This document shows positions 9,956 through 51,939 of a stretch of DNA of 52,031 nucleotides, piece after piece. A program made the position numbers and the translations under genes. The stretch covers positions 1-52,031 of the forward strand of contig JAUNJE010000016.1 of assembly GCA_030533415.1 (NCBI GenBank), in the 5' to 3' direction. The notes below the pieces were generated by a model that was not told the origin of the DNA, did no database searches, and worked only from the letters and a program-made list of their open reading frames with translations. Origin of the DNA: Eubacteriales bacterium. Its GTDB lineage: Bacteria > Bacillota > Clostridia > Oscillospirales > Oscillospiraceae. Each line of letters opens with the position of its first letter. Positions within the stretch are counted from its first letter, which is position 1.

Positions 9956-10013
9956 GCCGTCAGGCGGTACCTTCTTTATAAAAATGTTTCATTTTTATAA
10001 AGAAACAGTATGA
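9956..10013 (+). repeat. Dispersed palindromic repeat, right-end fragment (copy 2)
   Basis: Only module C is present: GTCAGGCGGTACC followed by the CTTTATAAAAATG palindrome and the end CAGTATGA. It sits between the GH30 gene and the binding-protein gene. Confidence 0.7.
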
Positions 10014-26146: not shown

Positions 26147-26282
26147 TTATACTGATATTCCATTAAAAAGTATCATTCGCCAGAATGGAACTTTTTAATA
26201 GGAAGATCATTATGAGACGGCAACGCCGTCAGGCGGTGCTTTCTTTATAAAAATGAAACATTTTTATAAAGAAACAGTATTA
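26147..26282 (+). repeat. Dispersed palindromic repeat, copy 5, ending in the GH20 stop codon
   Basis: Modules A and C are complete and B is missing. The ends read TTATACTG and CAGTATTA. The final TTA (26280-26282) is, on the minus strand, the TAA stop of the GH20 gene. Confidence 0.75.
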
Positions 26283-37833: not shown

Positions 37834-40098
37834 TTATTCCGAAAGGTACAGATTCAGGGCGCCGATGGCTGCTTTGGCGGCCTCCTGGGGGGTCAGTTCG
37901 CCCTTCAGGCAGGCGTTGGCCTGCTCCATGACCATATTGCGGATGATCCGGTTGGTCAGGGCGGGGGTGGTCAGAGCGTCCACCCAGGTTTTCAGCTGCT
38001 GGCGGTGGCTCTGGTCCGGGTAGGTGATGTCCAGAGAGAGCGCCGCACCATCTCCGTAGGAGGTATAGATGCTGCCATTCATCTCCTGCTCCTCGTTGAT
38101 CATCTTGTCGAAAGCGGCCCGGTTCACCGGGAAGCCGGTGCTGAGGCAGCTGAACTGGATGTCCTGGCTGAGCATAAAGGCCACGAAATCCACCGCGTAG
38201 TCCTGGTTGGCGCTGGTGTTCAGCACGCCCATGATCCGCCGGGGCAGGAACACATTGCTCACCTGCAGGCTGAGGGGCGCCACCTCGTAGCCCTCCAGCT
38301 GATCGTCGCCTGCCAGGGCGTGGGCAAAGGAGCGGATGCCGTCAATGGTTCCGGAGGTCAGGCAAGCGCTTCCCAGCAGAATCTGAATTGCGCCGGACAT
38401 ACCCGTATATTCACCTGGAGTATAAAAGCCTTCCTCGTCTTCCATTTTCGCTATTTTATCCGCCATTTCCTCCCGCATCCCGGCGTCCAGGGCGTAGAGG
38501 GACTGCATGGCAGCGTAATATTCGGCCAGCTTTTCTTCATCCAGTGTACCGTCGCCGCGGATCCAGGCTGCGGAGCAGCTGTCATAGAACAGGTCCGCCA
38601 CCAGCTCCGGGATGAAACCAATCAGGACGCTGCGGGCCTGGGGATTTTCTGCCTGGGCCTGGGCGGCCGCCGCCACCAGAGAATCCAGGTCGTGGATCTG
38701 GGAGACGATATGGCCGGGACCGTAGATGGCCGGAATGGCATAGGTGGTTGGGATCACGCTGAGCTTACCATCGGTTTCATAGCAATTCGCCACCTGCTTC
38801 AGCAGCGGCCCCGCCTGCTCTGCCGCACCCCGCAGGTCGATCAGCAGGTCTTTTTCCAGGAAGGTATCCAGGGAAAGGCCGTCCAGCTCCAGAATATCCG
38901 GCCCGTCTCCCGCCAGAATCTGGGTGTTCAGCGCCCGGATGGCGTCAGCCTCCGTCACGCCGTCCTCCCCGGTCAGGCCAACCTCCAGATCGATGGCCAC
39001 ATCCGGGTTGGCCTTCTGGTATTGGGTGATGATCTGCCGCAGATCCTCGTCGTCATACAGGCTGTAAACGCGCAGCTGGTGGCTGGGAACCGTGGGCATA
39101 TCCGGGTCGTAGACATAGTGGTAGACCCGGTAGGCCTCGCTGTCAACGCCCATCACATAGAAGCTGCCGTCGTCAGCACCGGCCAGGGCTTCGGTATAAA
39201 AGCTGGGATCCCCCAGGGAAGTTCTGGCGCCGCTGACCAATTCTTCCACAATGCTTCCCCCGGGAGCATAGCTGAACAGCCCTTCATGGGTGGTGAAGAA
39301 CAGATATCCGTCCCCGTTTTCCCAGAGGGTAATTCTGGGTGTATTGCCCATGGTGTCCTGCAAGGAAGAAACAATTTTCTCCTGCAAAGCACCGGCCAGG
39401 GCGGTGTCCGTGCCCTCGTGGAGCACACTGCAATCGTCAAAGCCCACCAGATACATGTCGTTGCCGCCGCAGCATACGGTCAAAACAACTTGGACAAGAT
39501 CATTGCGTTTTTCACTGAGCGCGCCCGTCTGGGTATCCACCTCCCGGACATCCGTGACACCGAATTCGGCAAACAGGCGGTTGTCGTCGGTGAAGTCGCA
39601 GGAAGCAATCAAAAAGCCGTCCTGGGGGTTGAAGTCCGGGTAGACGATGGGCAGCTCCCGGCATCCGCCGTCCGGCTCCACAATCCAGAAACGGAAGGCG
39701 TTGCCGCTGGTTTCCCCGTCCGTCACAACGGTGTCGCAGAACACTGTCCCATCGGGAGCAAGGGCCAGGGATTCGACGCGCCCGCTGTTCAGAATCTCAC
39801 CCGGCAGTTCCTGGTTTTCCTCCCAGGCGCTCCGATCCGAATTGGTGGTATACAGCCGAATTTCGTCATCGCCCTCAATGGCGATGCGCAGCTGTCCGGT
39901 AGAGAGCATCACCATGTCCATGGCGGCTCCCTCCTTCGGAAGGGGAAAGTCCTTCTCGACATACCGTCCCATGGCACTGCCGCCATTGGCCGGGGATACT
40001 GTCAGGCTTGGTTCCGTTTTGCCTGTGCAGCCTGTAAGGCAGCCCAGCAGCCCCAAAAGGGCCAGCGCCAGGGCGAAAAGTCGTTTGCTGTTTCTCAT
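37834..40098 (-). CDS. Lipoprotein joining a propeller-like domain to a solute-binding domain
   Basis: The 754-residue protein has a lipoprotein signal (CLTGC, lipidated Cys24). Residues about 40-350 look like a beta-propeller: repeated blocks such as SGRVESLALAPDGTVF, DGYLFFTTHEGLFSY and ADDGSFYVMG. Residues about 360-750 are a family 1 extracellular solute-binding protein (YSLYDDEDLRQIITQYQKANPDV, then GDGPDILELDGL). This is nearly twice the usual size. The start at 40098 has AAAGGAGG upstream. Its own promoter carries the TTAGAGA tandem box that also stands before the permease operon, so it is the probable binding subunit and perhaps the sensor input of that system (inference). Confidence 0.88.
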   Translation of the reverse strand: MRNSKRLFALALALLGLLGCLTGCTGKTEPSLTVSPANGGSAMGRYVEKDFPLPKEGAAMDMVMLSTGQLRIAIEGDDEIRLYTTNSDRSAWEENQELPGEILNSGRVESLALAPDGTVFCDTVVTDGETSGNAFRFWIVEPDGGCRELPIVYPDFNPQDGFLIASCDFTDDNRLFAEFGVTDVREVDTQTGALSEKRNDLVQVVLTVCCGGNDMYLVGFDDCSVLHEGTDTALAGALQEKIVSSLQDTMGNTPRITLWENGDGYLFFTTHEGLFSYAPGGSIVEELVSGARTSLGDPSFYTEALAGADDGSFYVMGVDSEAYRVYHYVYDPDMPTVPSHQLRVYSLYDDEDLRQIITQYQKANPDVAIDLEVGLTGEDGVTEADAIRALNTQILAGDGPDILELDGLSLDTFLEKDLLIDLRGAAEQAGPLLKQVANCYETDGKLSVIPTTYAIPAIYGPGHIVSQIHDLDSLVAAAAQAQAENPQARSVLIGFIPELVADLFYDSCSAAWIRGDGTLDEEKLAEYYAAMQSLYALDAGMREEMADKIAKMEDEEGFYTPGEYTGMSGAIQILLGSACLTSGTIDGIRSFAHALAGDDQLEGYEVAPLSLQVSNVFLPRRIMGVLNTSANQDYAVDFVAFMLSQDIQFSCLSTGFPVNRAAFDKMINEEQEMNGSIYTSYGDGAALSLDITYPDQSHRQQLKTWVDALTTPALTNRIIRNMVMEQANACLKGELTPQEAAKAAIGALNLYLSE

Positions 40099-40127: not shown

Positions 40128-40160
40128 AGCATAATGGGTCAATCTCTAAGAGGTCTCTAA
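40128..40160 (-). promoter_or_regulatory. Response-regulator box and -10 of the propeller-binding protein gene
   Basis: On the minus strand TTAGAGA (40160-40154), 4 bases, TTAGAGA (40149-40143), 9 bases, then TATGCT (40133-40128). The repeats start 11 bases apart, one helical turn, and replace the -35 element. The same arrangement is found at 46883-46915. Confidence 0.7.
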
Positions 40161-40223
40161 TGCGGATTTCTTCGGAAATTGTTTCATGCTTATCGGAGTA
40201 ACTCGATAAATCTGCCTGTCCTG

Positions 40224-40440
40224 CACTGGCGCGGGAGCGCCTAAGGCTCCCTTGTGCAAAGGGAGCTGGGCAAAAATCTTTGATTTTTGACTGAGGGATT
40301 GTCGCGGCAGGAATTTCGTATTCGCCTGGCACTGATGCGAAGAGGAAGTTCTTACTGCACAATCCCTCCGTCACGGCTTACGCCGTGCCACCTCAGCGCA
40401 AGGCACTCCCTTCGGTCGCCTTTACACAAGGGAGGCTTTG
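40224..40440 (+). repeat. Oscillospirales-type long stem-loop repeat (family 2), copy 2
   Basis: An outer inverted repeat (GGCTCCCTTGTGCAAAGG against TTACACAAGGGAGGCTTT) encloses an inner one (GAGGGATTGT against ACAATCCCTC), giving a long stem-loop. It lies between the histidine kinase stop and the next promoter. Together they fill the 417 bases here. Other copies: 25757-25906 and 51988-52031. Confidence 0.7.
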
Positions 40441-40515
40441 GTGCGCTGCAAGTCGGTTTTGCTGAGCAAAATCGGCAAGCGTCTCCCAACGGGATACCAC
40501 AATTGTGCATTGGCT

Positions 40516-41802
40516 TCAAGCCACCGGCAGTTCTACGATGAACACCGCGCCGCCCCCTGCGGCGTCCTCCACCCAGAGCTTTCCATGGTGGAGCTTCACG
40601 ATCTCCGCCGCGATACAAAGCCCCAGCCCAAAATGGGAGCGGTTGGAGCGGGCCTTCTCCACCCGGTGGAACCGTTCAAAAATCCGCTGCTTCTCCCCAT
40701 CCGGGACCCCCGGTCCGGTGTCGGATACGGTAAACCGGACACTGCTCCGCCGCCATTCCAGCCCCAAGCGGACCCGGCCGGGGGACGGGGTATAGTCCAG
40801 GGCATTGTCCAGGAGGATGGACAGCACCTGAATGATCCGGTCCTTGTCAAGATACACCGCCGGGCCGTTCTTCTCCGGCAGGTCCAGGGACAGGGAAAGC
40901 CCCTTTTCCTTCGCCAGGGAGAAATAGGATTCGTATACCCCCAGCAGCAGCATATCCAGCTCCGCTTCTCCGGGGTTCAGGCCCCAGCTCTGGCTGTCGG
41001 CGCCTGCCAGGGTCAGCAGGTCCCCGATCAGCCGGGTCATCCGCGTCCCCTCCCGGCGGATGATATCCGAAAACAGCGCCTGCTGGGCCGGCTCCATACA
41101 TTCCGCCCGCTCCCAGGCCGATGTGGCGGACAGGATCGCCGCCAGCGGTGTCCGCAGTTCATGGGAAGCGTCGGCCGTAAACTGGGCCTGCCGCCGCTGG
41201 TTCTCCTGAATGGGCCGCAGCATCTTTCCGGTAAAGCACCAGGAAAACAGTCCCAAAAGCCCCAGGGCCGCCAGCTCCGCAAGGCAGACCACCAGGCGCT
41301 GCCTGTGGATGCCCTGCTCTATCTCCGTCAGGGGGTAAAGCAGAATCAGCTCCAGCACTGTCCCGTTTTTCGGGATCAGCGCCAGACCGGCGAAATTGTC
41401 CCCCTCTCCCCGCAGGGAAAAGACACAGCTGCCGCCGGTCCGGGAGCGGCCGGCCTCCAGGTTAAATTCCGCCTTCGCCTGCTCCCGCGCCTTCTGGAAT
41501 TCCGGCGCCAGCAGCTGCCTCTGGGGCGACAGCCCCATGGAAAACAGGGGGTTGTCCCCATCCCGGATGGAGATAAAAACATGCCCGGCGCTTTCCATCT
41601 GCTGCAGCCAGGTGACGGAAAGCTGGTCCTGCCCAACCAGATATGCCGACACCGTACCGAGATTGTCGGAAAAATTTTGAAACGCCTTGTCGCGGGTATT
41701 CTTCTCCGAGACGAAAAGGCTGAACAGCGTGATGCTCACCAATATCGCCCCGGTGACAGCGGTATTAAAAAACGTCAGTTTCCAGCGCAGATGCTTAATC
41801 AT
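40516..41802 (-). CDS. Sensor histidine kinase
   Basis: The 428-residue kinase has two membrane segments (about 10-32 and 168-190) flanking an extracellular sensor domain of about 135 residues. The HisKA motif DASHELRTPL carries phosphorylated His214, followed by an ATPase domain (N box LDNALDY, G1 DTGPGVPDG, G2 FGLGLCIA). There is no obvious HAMP domain; the second segment leads almost directly into the H box. Its start overlaps the response-regulator stop by 8 bases (ATGATTAA). The signal is unknown; neighbours suggest a sugar or an envelope-active compound. Confidence 0.95.
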   Translation of the reverse strand: MIKHLRWKLTFFNTAVTGAILVSITLFSLFVSEKNTRDKAFQNFSDNLGTVSAYLVGQDQLSVTWLQQMESAGHVFISIRDGDNPLFSMGLSPQRQLLAPEFQKAREQAKAEFNLEAGRSRTGGSCVFSLRGEGDNFAGLALIPKNGTVLELILLYPLTEIEQGIHRQRLVVCLAELAALGLLGLFSWCFTGKMLRPIQENQRRQAQFTADASHELRTPLAAILSATSAWERAECMEPAQQALFSDIIRREGTRMTRLIGDLLTLAGADSQSWGLNPGEAELDMLLLGVYESYFSLAKEKGLSLSLDLPEKNGPAVYLDKDRIIQVLSILLDNALDYTPSPGRVRLGLEWRRSSVRFTVSDTGPGVPDGEKQRIFERFHRVEKARSNRSHFGLGLCIAAEIVKLHHGKLWVEDAAGGGAVFIVELPVA

Positions 41803-42475
41803 GGCGGTCCTCCATCCGGTAGCCGACGCCCCGGACGGTGGTCAGCTGCAGGCGGCTGCCCACCTTGCCCAGGCTCCGCCTGAGAAAATAGGTATAGTTG
41901 TCCAGGTTGCCGTCCTCCACATCGCAGTCCATGCCCCAGACCCGCAGAAGAATGGTCTGCCTTGGCAGGGTCTGGCCCGGATTGCGCAGAAACAGCTCCA
42001 GCAGATCCCCCAGCCGCTTGGACAAGGTGGTGGCGGTTCTGCCCCGGCGCAGAACCAGTCTCCGCGGTTCATAGGTGATATCGCCATAGGACAGCGTATC
42101 GGCGTCCTGCAAGGAAAGGGGCCGGCGCAGCACACAGCGAATTCGGGCCAACAGCTCTTCAAAGGCGAAGGGCTTCACCATATAGTCATCCGCCCCATTG
42201 TTCAGCCCCTGGGTCCGGTCTCCCACCTGCCCCAGGGCCGTCAGGAAGATCACCGGGGTGGAAATGCCCTCCCGGCGCATGGCGCGCAGCACCTCCATGC
42301 CGTCTAAGCCCGGCAGCATCCGGTCCAGCAAGACCAGGTCATGGATGCGCTCCCGGATAAACATCAGCCCCTCTTCCCCGTCCTGGCTGACGTCCACGGC
42401 AAAGCCCTCATGCCGCAGCTGGAAGGGAATGGTCTGGCACAGGCTTTCGTCATCCTCGATCAGCAATATCCGCAT
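41795..42475 (-). CDS. OmpR/PhoB family response regulator
   Basis: The 226-residue protein has a receiver domain (acidic pair EDD 7-9, phosphorylated Asp51 in LLDRMLPG, Lys in VKPFAFEEL) and a C-terminal winged helix (about 128-222, ending TTVRGVGYRM). Its start lies inside the end of the MacB-like gene (26-base overlap), and its end overlaps the kinase start. OmpR-family proteins bind tandem repeats at 11-base period, exactly what is seen at 40143-40160 and 46898-46915. Confidence 0.96.
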   Translation of the reverse strand: MRILLIEDDESLCQTIPFQLRHEGFAVDVSQDGEEGLMFIRERIHDLVLLDRMLPGLDGMEVLRAMRREGISTPVIFLTALGQVGDRTQGLNNGADDYMVKPFAFEELLARIRCVLRRPLSLQDADTLSYGDITYEPRRLVLRRGRTATTLSKRLGDLLELFLRNPGQTLPRQTILLRVWGMDCDVEDGNLDNYTYFLRRSLGKVGSRLQLTTVRGVGYRMEDRHD

Positions 42476-43472
42476 TGTCCCGCCTCCTTACCGCCCACAG
42501 CGCGAGCATTGCCGCCACTGTGGAATTTCCCATTGATTTTACCATATTCAGCAGCATTTGCAACTGCCTGTTTCCCTGAGGTGTATATAAAATCTGCAGA
42601 AGGTTTTCCTTTTGCCCTTTCCACCAATTTCCCCAGAAGGAAAAATCCGACCACCGGGAGGGGATCAGACTCGGCGGAAAGACAATCCGCCTGCCCAGCA
42701 GCCAAAGCGTGCAGGCCGCCAATATCAGCGCCAGGACCGTCCTTCCCAGCAGCCACCACTGGCCACCCGAAAGGATGCCCGGAAGGGACAGCTTTTTCCA
42801 GTCTCTCCCCAGATACCCCCAAACCGACAGCAGCAGGATGCCCGGAAAAAGCAGCAGCAGGTCCTTCGTCAAGGCCCAGAGGGGGAAGAAATCGACGACC
42901 GTCCCCCGCAGCCCGGCGCGCAGCAAAAACTGCGTGCCCAGCATTTCCCCATTTTCCGCCGGCGCAGAGAGCACACACCGGGAAAGGGAATTTCCATCCT
43001 CCGCCCTGGCCATCGTCACCATGGTGGGCCGCAAAGCGGAAACCGTGCCCAGAACCCGGTAGGAGATCCCATCCTGCACAAGAAGCTGTCCGCCGCACAG
43101 GACGGTGCCGAACAGGGTTTGGGCCGTCCCTTCGTCGACCAGGCATCCATCCTGCCACGCCAGGCATCCCGCTCCCATCAGTTCCGGATTCCCGGACAGC
43201 AAAATCCGGGTGACCTGGGCGGAAGCGCCGGTTTCCCGGCAGGAAACCACCTGATTTCCGGTTTCTCCCCAAAAGCAGAACCCGGTCGGAACCTCCTCCT
43301 TCTCTTCCTGGGCAAAAACCGCTTCCGCTGCCGGGGCATCCACACTCTGCTCCAGCGTAATCTGTACCAGCTCCGCCGTTTCCCCGGCCAAACCGCAGAA
43401 GAAGATGCCGAAAGCGTATAGCGTAGCCGCCGCCAGCAGCCCCCACAGGCGAATCCGCGTTTTCCTGTCCAT
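42450..43472 (-). CDS. MacB-like (periplasmic core domain) membrane protein
   Basis: The 340-residue protein has an N-terminal membrane segment (about 5-25) and an extracellular domain (about 30-190) resembling the core of MacB/FtsX-type ABC permeases (AQTLFGTVLCGGQLLVQDGI, then SYRVLGTVSAL). Two or three more membrane segments follow (about 200-325). It is not a full MacB: the ATPase is absent and the C-terminal membrane part is unusual. It starts one base after the adaptor stop. It likely pairs with that adaptor. Confidence 0.7.
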   Translation of the reverse strand: MDRKTRIRLWGLLAAATLYAFGIFFCGLAGETAELVQITLEQSVDAPAAEAVFAQEEKEEVPTGFCFWGETGNQVVSCRETGASAQVTRILLSGNPELMGAGCLAWQDGCLVDEGTAQTLFGTVLCGGQLLVQDGISYRVLGTVSALRPTMVTMARAEDGNSLSRCVLSAPAENGEMLGTQFLLRAGLRGTVVDFFPLWALTKDLLLLFPGILLLSVWGYLGRDWKKLSLPGILSGGQWWLLGRTVLALILAACTLWLLGRRIVFPPSLIPSRWSDFSFWGNWWKGQKENLLQILYTPQGNRQLQMLLNMVKSMGNSTVAAMLALWAVRRRDNADIADRG

Positions 43473-43473
43473 A

Positions 43474-45126
43474 TCAGTCCACCCGGACACGGCTGCCGAT
43501 GTCCACCGCTCTGTCAGAACTCACGATGACCTGCTGTTCACGGTGAAGCGTCCCCTCCGCCAGGGCCGCCACGCTCTCGTTCTGCTCCAGTACCGTAACG
43601 CTGACCTTTCTTGCCTGCAGCTGGGTTCCCAGGACGGATTCCACTTGTTCCACCACCAGCACATAGGGCTGGTTCCGCGCATCCAGATGGAGAGCGGACA
43701 GGGGAACACAGCAGGCATATGCCTGGGATTTGCGGGTGAAGCTCAGTTCGGCGCTGGCTCCCAGGTCCAGGGTATTCGCCGGGAGCTGTACCGTCAGCCG
43801 GTAGCCGCCTCCCGCCTCTTCATCGGCGGAAAAGGTGGTGACGGCCAAATCCTCATAGCGCTTTCCGGTGCTTTCCGCCCGGAGGGTCACCTTATCCCCC
43901 ACCCCAATGTATTTGCTCTGCTCCTGCGTGGCAAGGCCGGAGAATTTGCAGCCCTGGGTCAGGTCGGCCAGCAGCATGGCGGTGGTGTCGGTAGTCTTTT
44001 CCCCGGTCTGGACATTGCAGCGGGTGACGATCCCCTCCACCGGGGACAAAATCTTCCCTTCCGCCTCCTGAAGGGCCTCCAGCTTGCTCAGCTCCAGGGC
44101 CATTTGGTCATAGGTGATCTGGCCGATCTGGGCTGAATGGTTGGAGCTTTCAGGCAAATTGGCGGAGCTGACCGCCCGGCCATAGACCGTTTGGGCGTTT
44201 TCCAGAGCGGACAGCGCATCGTCGTAGTCCTCCTGGGCCTTCTCCACGGCATCCAAAAGCGCCTGCTCCGAGCCGGTTTGGACGCCGGTCTGCTGTTCCC
44301 GGCGGTAGTCCTCCAGAGCGGCGTCCGCCTGCTCCACCACCTGCTTTGCCTGCTCCACGCCGGCTTCCGCACCGGACAGCTGCTGGGCATATTCCGCCTG
44401 CACGGTCTGGGCAATGGCGTCCAGCTCCTCCTGGGGCAGAGTTTCCTCCGGCTGCTCAGCGTTGGCCTGGTCTGTCGCCGCCTGAATTTTGTCCGCCATC
44501 TCCTGCCGGAGCCGCTCCAGCGCGGACGATGCGGCTTCATAAGCGGCCTTGGCCTCCTGACAGGCCCTGGTCAGAGAATCCTCTTTGTCCTGATCCTCCG
44601 TAATACCGTTGTAAAAATTTTCCAGCGCCGTTTCCGCCCGGTCCAAAGCCCGGGCTGCCCGTTCCAGCGTGACCTCCGCCTGGGAAACGGCGGAATCATA
44701 ATTTTCCTCCGCCTGGGCCTGCTGGTTGGCACGCTGCTGCTGGCTGGCGGAATTTTGGCTCCATGCGTCCTGGACGGAGAGCCGCTGCTTTTCCATTTCC
44801 TGCTTCTGGGTCAGAATGGTTTCCGCTAAGTAATCTAAGTCCAGTGTGAACAGTACATCCCCCTGGTTCACCCGCTGGCCCTCATTGACGCAGACCCCGG
44901 CGATTCTCAGCCCTCCCACCGTCGTTACCGCCTGCTCCTGATTCTGCACGGTTTTGCCCGTAAGATTCACGGTGTGGTTGACGGTCCCGCTGCTGGGAGC
45001 CGCAGTGCTGACCACGGCGATGCCATGCTGGTAAACCGCCCGGGACAGCAGGGTAAACAGAAGCATCCCGGCGAAGAATATTCCCGTCAGCTTCCAGATT
45101 CTGCTTTTCTCTTTTTTCAAGTACAT
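43474..45126 (-). CDS. HlyD/MacA-like efflux adaptor with long coiled coil
   Basis: The 550-residue protein has one N-terminal membrane segment (about 12-32), a first lipoyl half (about 62-95, AGVCVNEGQRVNQGDVLFTL), a long alpha-helical hairpin rich in Ala, Glu and Gln (about 100-340), a second lipoyl half (GKILSPVEGIVTRC) and a beta-barrel region. This is the architecture of membrane-fusion adaptors of MacA/HlyD type. The helical hairpin is unusually long for a monoderm. It starts one base after the permease stop (TGA-G-ATG). It is odd in an operon of sugar-importer permeases. Confidence 0.9.
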   Translation of the reverse strand: MYLKKEKSRIWKLTGIFFAGMLLFTLLSRAVYQHGIAVVSTAAPSSGTVNHTVNLTGKTVQNQEQAVTTVGGLRIAGVCVNEGQRVNQGDVLFTLDLDYLAETILTQKQEMEKQRLSVQDAWSQNSASQQQRANQQAQAEENYDSAVSQAEVTLERAARALDRAETALENFYNGITEDQDKEDSLTRACQEAKAAYEAASSALERLRQEMADKIQAATDQANAEQPEETLPQEELDAIAQTVQAEYAQQLSGAEAGVEQAKQVVEQADAALEDYRREQQTGVQTGSEQALLDAVEKAQEDYDDALSALENAQTVYGRAVSSANLPESSNHSAQIGQITYDQMALELSKLEALQEAEGKILSPVEGIVTRCNVQTGEKTTDTTAMLLADLTQGCKFSGLATQEQSKYIGVGDKVTLRAESTGKRYEDLAVTTFSADEEAGGGYRLTVQLPANTLDLGASAELSFTRKSQAYACCVPLSALHLDARNQPYVLVVEQVESVLGTQLQARKVSVTVLEQNESVAALAEGTLHREQQVIVSSDRAVDIGSRVRVD

Positions 45127-45127
45127 C

Positions 45128-45976
45128 TCAATCCTTCCCTCCCGACAGGGCAATGCCCTGCTCCAAATATTCCTGACAGCCTAAAAACAGCAGCAGCGCC
45201 GGGACCAGCATCAGCAGCGACGCCGCGAAGCCCATCCCCATGTCCCCTATGCCGATCTCCGGGAGAAATAGAGATAAGGGCCAAAGTGTCTTGGTTTTCA
45301 GATAGGTCATGGGCTGCTCGATCATATTCCAGGAATCCAGAAATGTCAGAATGCCCACCGACAGGATGCCCGGCGCCCCCAGAGGGATGGCGATCTGGCA
45401 AAAAATCCGCAGTTCCCCCGCACCGTCCAGCCGGGCCGCCTCCAGAACCTGCTGCGGGATAGCCAGGAAGAAGCGGTGCAGGATGAAAACCGGGAATGTG
45501 GAAAAAATGGCGGGCAGAATCACCGCGCCCAGGGTATCCAATAGGCCAAAGCCGCGGAGCACCAGATACTGGGGAAACATCAGCACCTGAAAGGGCATCA
45601 GCATCAGCACAATATAAATTGTAAGGATCGCCTTTTTTCCCCGCAGGGGGAACCGGGCCAAGGCCCAGGCGGCGGGCACCGCTATCAGCAGCTGCCCCGC
45701 CAAAATGCCAAGGGAAATGACCGCGGAGTTCCAGAACATCGTGAAAAAACCGGGGCTGTCCAACAGCACCTCTACCAAGGACTGCAGTGTGGGCGCCGCA
45801 GGCAGCGCGGACCAAACCGCCATGCCTTCCGCATTCGTAAAAACCGGCGAAAGGTTCGCCTCCAATTCCCATTGGGACGAAAACGCCCCCGTGAGCACGA
45901 CCCAAACAGGATAACAGATCAAAAGGGTCAGTCCCAGCAAAACGGCGAACAGCAGCGCCTTTCCAAATTTTCGCAT
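45128..45976 (-). CDS. Carbohydrate-type ABC permease (MalG type)
   Basis: The 282-residue protein has six membrane segments and an EAA-like loop LEAARLDGAGELRIFCQIAI (about 183-202). It starts 3 bases after the first permease stop and is followed one base later by the adaptor gene, so translation is coupled. Cargo is unknown. Confidence 0.92.
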   Translation of the reverse strand: MRKFGKALLFAVLLGLTLLICYPVWVVLTGAFSSQWELEANLSPVFTNAEGMAVWSALPAAPTLQSLVEVLLDSPGFFTMFWNSAVISLGILAGQLLIAVPAAWALARFPLRGKKAILTIYIVLMLMPFQVLMFPQYLVLRGFGLLDTLGAVILPAIFSTFPVFILHRFFLAIPQQVLEAARLDGAGELRIFCQIAIPLGAPGILSVGILTFLDSWNMIEQPMTYLKTKTLWPLSLFLPEIGIGDMGMGFAASLLMLVPALLLFLGCQEYLEQGIALSGGKD

Positions 45977-45979
45977 CGT

Positions 45980-46846
45980 CTATTCCTCCTTGTCCCAGGC
46001 TTTCCGCAGAAACCCGATTAAAATAAAAACCACCGCCGAGGTCATTACGGAAGCAGCGGCAATTTTATCAAAATCCAATTCCCGGAACCAATTGTTGTAC
46101 AGGTGCTGCAATAGGTACATGCTTTCATCGGGATAATCCCCCGCGACCAGCCACGCCTCCCGGAACACCTTAAAGGAATTCAGCAGGGACAGCACCGTGA
46201 TGGAATAGCCCGTGGTTCGCAGATTGGGCAGGGTGATATACAGAAAGGTCTGCCAGGTATTCGCACCGTCCATCTGCGCCGCTTCGTATACGCTGTCGGG
46301 AATCGCCGTAAGTCCGGCCGTCCATAAAACCATGGTATATCCCAGGTTTTTCCAAAGATAACTGATGACCAGCATCCAGAAGGCGGCGCCGGAGCCCATC
46401 CAGTCCACTCCGCTCCCGCCAAGCACAAGGAGAGAACCGTTGATGAGGCCTTTTTCATGGAACAGTACCTTCCACACCAGTACCACAGAGGCTGCCGGAA
46501 CCGCCATTGGCATCAGGAACGCGCTCCTCAAAGTGCCGCCCACCCGGGCAATGGCCCAAAGCACCACCGCCAGCGCCAAAGACAGCACAATCAGCAGCGG
46601 AATGCAGACCGCGGTAAACCGGGCCGTATTGGAAACGGCAATCCGGAAAGCGGGATTCTTCAGAACGGCTAAAAAGTTTTGAAATCCCATCCACTTTCCG
46701 CTGATGGTATTTCGAAAAGAGCCTGCCAGCACCTGCAGCATTGGCAGGAGGGCAAAACACAGAACACCCAGTAAATTGGGCAGGAGGAAAGCCCAAGTGA
46801 TCACCGTTTGCCTGACATTTGGGCGAGGTAGCTTTCTTTTCCGCAT
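45980..46846 (-). CDS. Carbohydrate-type ABC permease (MalF type)
   Basis: The 288-residue protein has six membrane segments and the EAA loop YEAAQMDGANTWQTFLYITL. It opens the seven-gene system; the TTAGAGA tandem box and -10 element lie at 46883-46915, 37 bases before its start codon. Its natural partner binding protein is probably the propeller fusion at 37834-40098, which has the same box. Confidence 0.93.
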   Translation of the reverse strand: MRKRKLPRPNVRQTVITWAFLLPNLLGVLCFALLPMLQVLAGSFRNTISGKWMGFQNFLAVLKNPAFRIAVSNTARFTAVCIPLLIVLSLALAVVLWAIARVGGTLRSAFLMPMAVPAASVVLVWKVLFHEKGLINGSLLVLGGSGVDWMGSGAAFWMLVISYLWKNLGYTMVLWTAGLTAIPDSVYEAAQMDGANTWQTFLYITLPNLRTTGYSITVLSLLNSFKVFREAWLVAGDYPDESMYLLQHLYNNWFRELDFDKIAAASVMTSAVVFILIGFLRKAWDKEE

Positions 46847-46882
46847 TGTAACCGCTGGTCCCTTCTATTACATGTGGAATCG

Positions 46883-46915
46883 AGTTTAGCCGATATGCCT
46901 CTAAGCTGTCTCTAA
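46883..46915 (-). promoter_or_regulatory. Response-regulator box and -10 of the permease-adaptor-kinase operon
   Basis: On the minus strand TTAGAGA (46915-46909), 4 bases, TTAGAGG (46904-46898), 9 bases, then TAAACT (46888-46883). It matches 40128-40160 in repeat sequence, repeat spacing and distance to the -10. The distal repeat overlaps the end of a dispersed repeat (TAATACTG). Confidence 0.7.
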
Positions 46916-47010
46916 TACTGTTTCTTTATAAAAATGTTTCACTTTTATGAAGGACACCGCCTGACGGCGTTGCCGTTTTCGTGATTTTCTATCTAAAAAT
47001 CACGAAAACG
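46913..47010 (-). repeat. Dispersed palindromic repeat, copy 6 (inverted)
   Basis: Modules C and B are present in reverse orientation, starting TAATACTGTTTCTTTAT and including TTTTCGTGATTTT with its complement; module A is absent. Confidence 0.7.
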
Positions 47011-51886: not shown

Positions 51887-51939
51887 TACGGTTTCTTTAT
51901 AAAACTGTTTCATTTTTATAAAGAAGGCACCGCCTGACG
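51884..51939 (-). repeat. Dispersed palindromic repeat, copy 7 (inverted, partial)
   Basis: It starts TAATACGGTTTCTTTATAAA, contains the CTTTATAAAAAT palindrome and ends in GGCACCGCCTGACG. Modules A and B are absent. The TAA supplies the stop codon of the 59-residue protein. Confidence 0.65.

What the first reader, a model, noticed from the sequence alone, without database searches (positions are those of the whole stretch)
40128..46915. Two identical tandem boxes define a self-regulated two-component regulon
TTAGAGA-N4-TTAGAG(A/G) stands before the first permease gene (46898-46915) and before the propeller-binding protein gene (40143-40160). In both, the second repeat is exactly 9 bases from a -10-like hexamer (TAAACT, TATGCT) and no -35 is present. 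An 11-base repeat period is what OmpR/PhoB-family activators bind, and the gene for such a regulator lies between the two sites. This predicts that the response regulator at 41795-42475 activates its own operon and the separate binding-protein gene.
Basis: partly seen in the sequence, partly recalled or inferred. Interest (0 to 1): 0.75.

Follow-up and report, generated by a model that had tools for sequence, protein, structure and literature searches.

The report
Two-component regulon with TTAGAG tandem boxes
Two matching DNA boxes in a gut bacterium are very probably the docking sites of a neighbouring signal-response protein that switches on its own transporter genes, and the same boxes recur beside the same genes in many related bacteria.

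Summary
Comparison supports the interpretation. In 136 genomes of the genus, all 10 with the response regulator (RR) have the box, 6 of 126 without it do; in 5 of these 6 it still fronts this cluster's genes. Box hexamers are 98-100% identical between species, the 60 bp upstream 28-33%. In 80 public loci 93 boxes were found, against 0-1 for each of 30 anagrams. Of 116 distinct sites 95 have TANNNT at one fixed distance and 17 others one or two 11-bp steps further. Where the recognition helix differs, box letters differ but the frame usually stays. The layout is that printed for PhoB and CiaR activator sites. Amendments: RR-HK probably also has a conserved promoter inside the preceding gene, and the regulon reaches well beyond the genus. 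Binding, activation, start sites and signal are untested. A new, well-supported member of a known kind.

The parts
46898..46915 (-). Operator box 1 (TTAGAGA-N4-TTAGAGG) before the first permease gene
   Evidence: hexamer identity 1.00 over 14 P1 promoters of the genus
46883..46888 (-). -10 hexamer TAAACT of the operon promoter, 9 bases after the box
45980..46846 (-). P1, ABC permease (BPD_transp_1; best NCBIfam model UgpA, below its cut-off)
45128..45976 (-). P2, ABC permease (BPD_transp_1; best NCBIfam model UgpE, below its cut-off)
43474..45126 (-). HlyD/RND_mfp-type adaptor-like protein (weak family scores)
   Evidence: one N-terminal hydrophobic segment
42450..43472 (-). MEMB, membrane protein with no Pfam or NCBIfam match at E 0.001; three hydrophobic segments by a simple scan
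42536..42563 (-). Probable promoter of RR-HK inside the MEMB gene (TTGCAA, 16 bases, TAAAAT with TG before it)
   Evidence: scan hit; TTG CAA codons identical in 10 of 10 genus loci, -10 kept as TAAAAT in 9 and TACAAT in 1
41795..42475 (-). RR, OmpR/PhoB-family response regulator, the proposed activator
   Evidence: PF00072 and PF00486; closest NCBIfam model PhoB, below its cut-off
41870..41917 (-). RR recognition-helix region EDGNLDNYTYFLRRSL (residues 187-202; helix assigned from recalled OmpR-family anatomy)
   Evidence: GNLDNY in 11 of 12 aligned RRs, window included; the twelfth is a distant RR
40516..41802 (-). HK, membrane histidine kinase
   Evidence: PF00512 and PF02518; hydrophobic segments at residues 9-34 and 168-192
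40237..40444 (.). Inverted-repeat element between HK and box 2 (32-base core found 8 times in the genome with up to 3 mismatches); not part of the regulon
   Evidence: not present where the relatives' box abuts HK
40143..40160 (-). Operator box 2 (TTAGAGA-N4-TTAGAGA) before the binding-protein gene
   Evidence: hexamer identity 0.98 over 10 SBP promoters of the genus
40128..40133 (-). -10 hexamer TATGCT of the binding-protein promoter, 9 bases after the box
37834..40098 (-). SBP, probable lipoprotein (signal judged by eye) with N-terminal six-bladed-propeller-like domain and C-terminal sugar-type solute-binding domain
   Evidence: PF01547

Best explanation
The boxes are operators of the response regulator encoded at 41795-42475. 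When the membrane kinase (40516-41802) phosphorylates it, the regulator dimerises and binds head to tail to the two TTAGAG half-sites 11 bp apart. Because the second half-site ends 10 bp before the -10 and there is no -35, the bound dimer takes the place of the -35 contact and recruits RNA polymerase, as PhoB and CiaR do. Two promoters are switched on: one for the six-gene operon (two ABC permeases, HlyD-like adaptor, membrane protein, RR, HK), which closes a positive feedback loop, and one for the lipoprotein that captures the substrate. A further promoter inside the membrane-protein gene probably supplies basal RR-HK. Shown by sequence comparison: box conservation, geometry, co-occurrence with the RR, covariation with the recognition helix in a few lineages, presence before the transcription units under two gene orders. 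Inferred: binding, activation (not repression), dependence on phosphorylation, operon transcription, substrate (perhaps an oligosaccharide, from the fold only).
For: Only two sites in the genome, both 5' of genes of one cluster. Genus: 10 of 10 genomes with the RR (69% identity or more) have the box, 6 of 126 others; Fisher p = 1.9e-11, not corrected for shared descent. Box hexamers 98-100% identical, upstream 60 bp 28-33%, P1 against SBP sites 0.99 and 0.25. 80 public loci: 93 boxes with -10, against 0-1 for each of 30 anagrams; period 11 gives 115, each other period from 7 to 16 gives 1-7. TANNNT at gap 10 in 95 of 116 sites; 17 of the other 21 have it at 21 or 32, i.e. 10+11n. RRs with GNLDNY: 42 of 44 loci boxed; RRs of at least 45% identity with another helix: 0 of 2; more distant RRs: 1 of 6. 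Of the 16 boxed loci without an RR in the fetched stretch, 13 have an RR of 57-62% identity elsewhere in the same genome. Of the 12 unboxed loci without an RR in the stretch, 8 genomes have an RR of 56-62% and 7 of these 8 have boxes elsewhere; the 4 genomes without have none. Altered helices go with altered letters in the same frame. Of 32 RR genes divergent from the transporter, 26 have a box (up to 2 mismatches) within 300 bp upstream. The differently ordered locus of G058 has boxes before three separate units.
Against: No experiment. Three boxed loci lack a close RR in the whole held genome: L126 (kinase present) and L098 and L103; the assemblies may be incomplete. One genome with the RR (G798) has no box at up to one mismatch. 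Two GNLDNY loci (L154, L156) lack a standard box (2-3 mismatches, or -10 shifted by one). Six of 32 divergent RR genes have no box within 300 bp. At family level the exact pattern alone is no more frequent than its reversed control: 6 places in 5 genomes besides the own one, control 10 places; in the genus, with one mismatch, the reversed control gives 17 places against 27, and only 3 of the 27 lie outside the cluster. Box identity is partly by selection, as sites were picked by the box.
Confidence: 0.88

Rival explanations
1. The same RR binds these boxes but represses, by blocking polymerase at the -35 region.
For: The box overlaps the -35 region, where repressors also bind; 56 of 95 sites have TG two bases before the -10 (extended -10), which could work without an activator.
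Against: No site has a good -35 (0 of 116 at 5 of 6), and both window promoters lack the TG. The fixed 10-bp gap and 11-bp steps are the printed layout of CiaR-activated promoters and resemble pho boxes that substitute the -35.
Confidence: 0.08
2. The boxes are operators of a different regulator encoded elsewhere, and the RR is only a neighbour.
For: Three boxed loci lack a close RR in the held genome.
Against: Co-occurrence of box and RR in the genus and in whole genomes beyond it; boxes before RR itself in divergent loci; letters change with the RR recognition helix.
Confidence: 0.05
3. The repeats are chance, or come with a dispersed repeat family.
For: A dispersed repeat (17-mer with 44 exact copies) directly abuts box 1; two of the four other copies in the window continue with TTAGA, and a partly similar stretch precedes box 2.
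Against: 44 exact copies but only two boxes in the genome; none of the other window copies makes a second half-site; several relatives have the box without such a stretch before it; speak against chance.
Confidence: 0.01

Closest known systems
CiaRH regulon of streptococci (CiaR box)
   Same: Two hexamers with 5 bp between, -10 at distance ten, OmpR-type RR, activation; conserved recognition helix used there to predict a shared box (passages of PMC3091779).
   Different: Box TTTAAG, helix VVEVYVSKVRKKL and target genes differ; here TTAGAG, NLDNYTYFLRRSL and a transporter cluster.
PhoB / Pho box (E. coli)
   Same: Two direct 11-bp repeats of 7 conserved and 4 less conserved bp (passage of PMC2648988); usually near the -10, substituting the -35 (passage of PMC4971064). 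PhoB is the best NCBIfam model for the RR.
   Different: The half-site CTGTCAT has other letters; the RR scores 173.3 bits against the PhoB cut-off of 296.2; none of the seven proteins matches a phosphate-uptake family.
Sugar-type (CUT1-like, name recalled) ABC importers
   Same: Two permeases and a sugar-type binding domain.
   Different: No ATPase among the seven genes here; an HlyD-like adaptor, an unknown membrane protein and a propeller fused to the binding protein in addition.

Membership tests
OmpR/PhoB-family response regulators | Receiver domain plus winged-helix Trans_reg_C | tested here: met
   PF00072 4.1e-26 and PF00486 7.7e-16, both above cut-off
PhoB-type activator site replacing the -35 | Direct repeats at 11-bp period, fixed short distance to -10, no -35 | tested here: met
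   printed geometry
PhoB-type activator site replacing the -35 | Binding by the RR and activation shown | not testable with these tools
   needs footprint, reporter and 5'-end mapping
PhoB (equivalog TIGR02154) | Score above the curated cut-off | tested here: not met
   173.3 bits against 296.2
CiaR | TTTAAG-N5-TTTAAG box and helix VVEVYVSKVRKKL | tested here: not met
   box TTAGAG-N5-TTAGAG, helix NLDNYTYFLRRSL; CiaR data
Sugar-type (SBP_bac_1) binding proteins | Pfam match above cut-off and fold | tested here: met
HlyD/RND_mfp adaptors | Curated scores | tested here: inconclusive
   HlyD_3 22.4 bits at cut-off 22.2 for the whole protein but no stretch on its own; RND_mfp 59.4 bits, cut-off 94.9

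The most novel reading that the evidence does not exclude
One RR lineage across Clostridia carries a natural recognition code: with GNLDNY in the helix the half-site is TTAGAG; with S(N/S)LDTY it is TTWAAG; with ANLDSY it is TTCMAG; with GNLNNY and ARR it is WTAGAC, in the same 11-bp / 10-bp frame. The lineage controls a transport system for which my searches found no description, in which a propeller-fused binding lipoprotein, two sugar-type permeases, an HlyD-like adaptor and an unknown membrane protein work together, with the lipoprotein possibly also presenting the signal to the kinase.
Probability: 0.4. Interest if true: 0.65.

Novelty: new member of a known kind. Interest (0 to 1): 0.5.

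Why it matters
To my knowledge (recalled, not searched) few two-component systems of uncultured gut Clostridia have a known operator. Here operator, promoter frame, regulator and targets can be named from sequence, and natural variants of regulator and operator allow a direct test of how OmpR-family helices choose DNA letters. It also ties an unusual transporter (importer permeases plus an exporter-type adaptor) to one signal.

Tried and rejected
A family-wide search with the exact box pattern alone gave no signal above its reversed control; the draw of 300 held only 6 genomes of the genus, so I switched to RR-guided comparison. The box before a distant RR gene in G353 (33% identity, other helix) has a TTGACA after it and another frame; I treat it as unproven. 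The triple TTAGAG in G307 shows no TANNNT at 10 bases after the last half-site and no match to the cluster's genes in the fetched 19 kb; left aside. The similarity upstream of the two window boxes, which I first took for a conserved element, is for box 1 a dispersed repeat. Stretches with related transporters but no close RR (in G010, G035, G050 and own contig C14) showed no box at up to 2 mismatches in the hexamers.

Five boxed loci (L153, L160, L161, L164, L174) looked at first like evidence against the RR; all five genomes proved to hold it elsewhere. A shuffled control for the de novo repeat scan was not run.

Literature: TTAGAG with response-regulator terms (5 papers, titles and abstract starts seen, none about this motif), with direct repeat and promoter (88 papers, 15 listed, titles and abstract starts seen; none opened, among them one on Salmonella PhoP promoters with two occurrences), Faecousia with two-component (4 listed), the gene set (none), OmpR-family specificity (none). 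Searches found the CiaR and PhoB papers, of which I saw passages only. Most subscription journals are not held. The fold search for the whole SBP was filled by the binding domain, so the N-terminal part was modelled alone. MEMB was not modelled.
Full report
Observation. In the held genome (2.72 Mb in 80 contigs, 88.5% complete) the exact pattern occurs only at these two places; with a -10 added and three mismatches allowed, still only these two, against ten for the reversed control.

Conservation in the genus. A search of 60 relatives with P1 found close orthologues in five further species of the genus (71-76% identity) and one of the same order (55%). The five have the cluster, complete or split over contigs, with a box before P1 and before SBP (one of these, in G002, with one mismatch). 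In the 136 held genomes of the genus, 16 have the box with -10 at up to one mismatch, at 27 places: 14 before P1, 10 before SBP, 3 elsewhere; the reversed control gave 17 places. The RR orthologue (69% identity or more) is in 10 of 136, all boxed; weaker matches (38-42%) in 16 further genomes are not counted as orthologues. Of the six boxed genomes without it, five have the box before P1 or SBP of this cluster on short or decayed stretches, and one (G445) has no recognisable gene of the cluster in the 20 kb fetched. Contig lengths shared with records of Candidatus Faecousia (16,165 and 15,488 bases) indicate that genus; this is an inference.

Footprint. Anchored on the box, 14 P1 promoters are 1.00 identical in the hexamers, 0.85 in the -10 and 0.28 in the 60 bases upstream; 10 SBP promoters 0.98, 0.86 and 0.33; P1 against SBP sites 0.99, 0.79 and 0.25. 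The SBP promoter of L088, which has four half-sites, and the three sites outside the cluster were left out of this count. Sites were picked by the box, so its identity is partly selection; the contrast with the flanks shows that the rest of the promoter is not conserved.

Beyond the genus. Of 42 loci with a complete GNLDNY-type RR, 32 have RR divergent from the transporter genes and 10 co-directional. In 1.364 Mb there are 93 boxes with a -10 in frame; each of 30 anagrams of TTAGAG gives 0 or 1; other repeat periods from 7 to 16 give 1-7 against 115 without the -10 condition. In 116 distinct sites (80 loci, window and eight further loci) TANNNT follows after 10 bases in 95; of the other 21, 17 have it after 21 or 32 bases, with tandem arrays of three or four half-sites in some loci. 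No site has a -35 at 5 of 6.

Link to the RR. Of the 80 loci, 44 hold an RR with GNLDNY in the recognition helix and 42 of these have a standard box; 2 have an RR of at least 45% identity with another helix and no standard box; 6 have only more distant RRs and 1 of them is boxed (L095, a genus locus whose operon is decayed); 28 have no RR in the stretch and 16 of them are boxed. Whole-genome searches behind these 28: of the 16 boxed, 13 genomes have an RR of 57-62% identity elsewhere, L098 and L103 only a 37% one, L126 none at E 1e-40. Of the 12 unboxed, 8 genomes have an RR of 56-62% and 7 of the 8 have boxes elsewhere (G798 none); the 4 genomes without such an RR have no box. Of three further genomes with only distant RRs in the locus, two have no box and one (G809) has two one-mismatch places whose context I did not check. 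In four genomes a box lies close upstream of the RR found elsewhere (G797, G802, G803, G804; coordinates).

Covariation. A search of 394 genomes of the order (10 with a match at E 1e-55, own genome included) added natural variants. Among RRs of at least 43% identity, eight loci have another helix core. Six of them show, 5' of the RR, a tandem repeat in the same frame but with other letters: SSLDTY or SNLDTY with TTAAAG and TTTAAG or CTTAAG (L147, L179-L181), ANLDSY with TTCCAG and TTCAAG (L168), GNLNNY with TTAGAC and ATAGAC (L182). L183 shows a pair by eye only, at a longer gap, and L184 shows none. L179-L181 come from one genus, so these are about four independent cases, and the scan had no shuffled control.

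Mechanism. The printed CiaR sites have two hexamers five bases apart and the -10 at distance ten (passages of PMC3091779); PhoB binds two 11-bp repeats of 7+4 (passage of PMC2648988), and in E. coli the pho box usually substitutes the -35 (passage of PMC4971064). The boxes here have that frame. The best reading is activation by the RR at both promoters, with feedback on RR-HK because they end the first operon; in the divergent layout 26 of 32 RR genes have a box within 300 bp upstream.

Amendment. Inside MEMB, 61-88 bases before the RR start, TTGCAA-16-TAAAAT with TG before the -10 was flagged by the consensus scan (4 promoter-like sites in the region, 2.3 in shuffles). In the ten genus loci with the RR the TTG CAA codons are identical in all ten, and the -10 survives as TAAAAT in nine and TACAAT in one, where the amino acids differ. 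Over six genes 50 of 630 conserved degenerate codon columns are identical; in MEMB itself 8 of 35, these two included. This suggests a basal promoter for RR-HK; it is not proof.

Regulon size. In this genome two promoters. Extra sites in relatives stand before a pair of small lipoprotein genes (G007) and a paralogous binding-protein operon (G002); some Lachnospiraceae genomes have five or six places (G802-G804).

Limits. Everything is sequence comparison. Loci are related by descent, so p-values overstate. Signal, substrate and the ATPase that drives the permeases are unknown; a gene that by eye looks like a sugar-type ABC ATPase follows MEMB in Sedimentibacter (L166), none is among the seven genes here.

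Noticed in passing
window 42536-42563 (-): Probable promoter inside the MEMB gene before RR; codons TTG CAA identical in 10 of 10 genus loci, -10 kept even where amino acids change.
   Followed up: yes
window 46916-46932 (-); also 9994-10010, 26263-26279, 1043-1059, 51887-51903: TTTATAAAGAAACAGTA is part of a dispersed inverted-repeat element: 44 exact copies and 105 within 3 mismatches in the genome (reversed control 30); one copy directly abuts box 1.
   Followed up: partly
window 40237-40444: Inverted-repeat element between HK and box 2; its 32-base core occurs 8 times in the genome with up to 3 mismatches. In several relatives box 2 abuts or overlaps the end of HK instead.
   Followed up: partly
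L069 10463, L076 6713, L085 13326, L097 11191: The stop codon of HK (TAG) lies inside the first TTAGAGA of the SBP box.
   Followed up: yes
L074 10067 (G007:C55): A third box with -10 before two related small lipoprotein-like genes of unknown function.
   Followed up: no
L078 9860 (G002:C12): Box with one mismatch and -10 in frame before a paralogous binding-protein/permease operon.
   Followed up: no
L094 11885 (G445:C2): A perfect box with -10 but no gene of the cluster recognised in the 20 kb fetched.
   Followed up: no
L082 8141 (G353:C16): TTAGAGA-N4-TTAGAGG directly before another response-regulator gene with a different helix, upstream of a TTGACA.
   Followed up: partly
L174 2812-4303: Kinase and box present without an RR gene detected beside them; the genome has an RR of 59% identity elsewhere.
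   Followed up: yes
G802, G803, G804 (genomes of L143, L145, L150): Five or six box places each, some far from the RR: the regulon may be larger in these genomes.
   Followed up: no
window 42450-43472 (-): MEMB has no Pfam or NCBIfam match at E 0.001, yet a relative stands next to the HlyD-like adaptor in many of the 80 loci.
   Followed up: no
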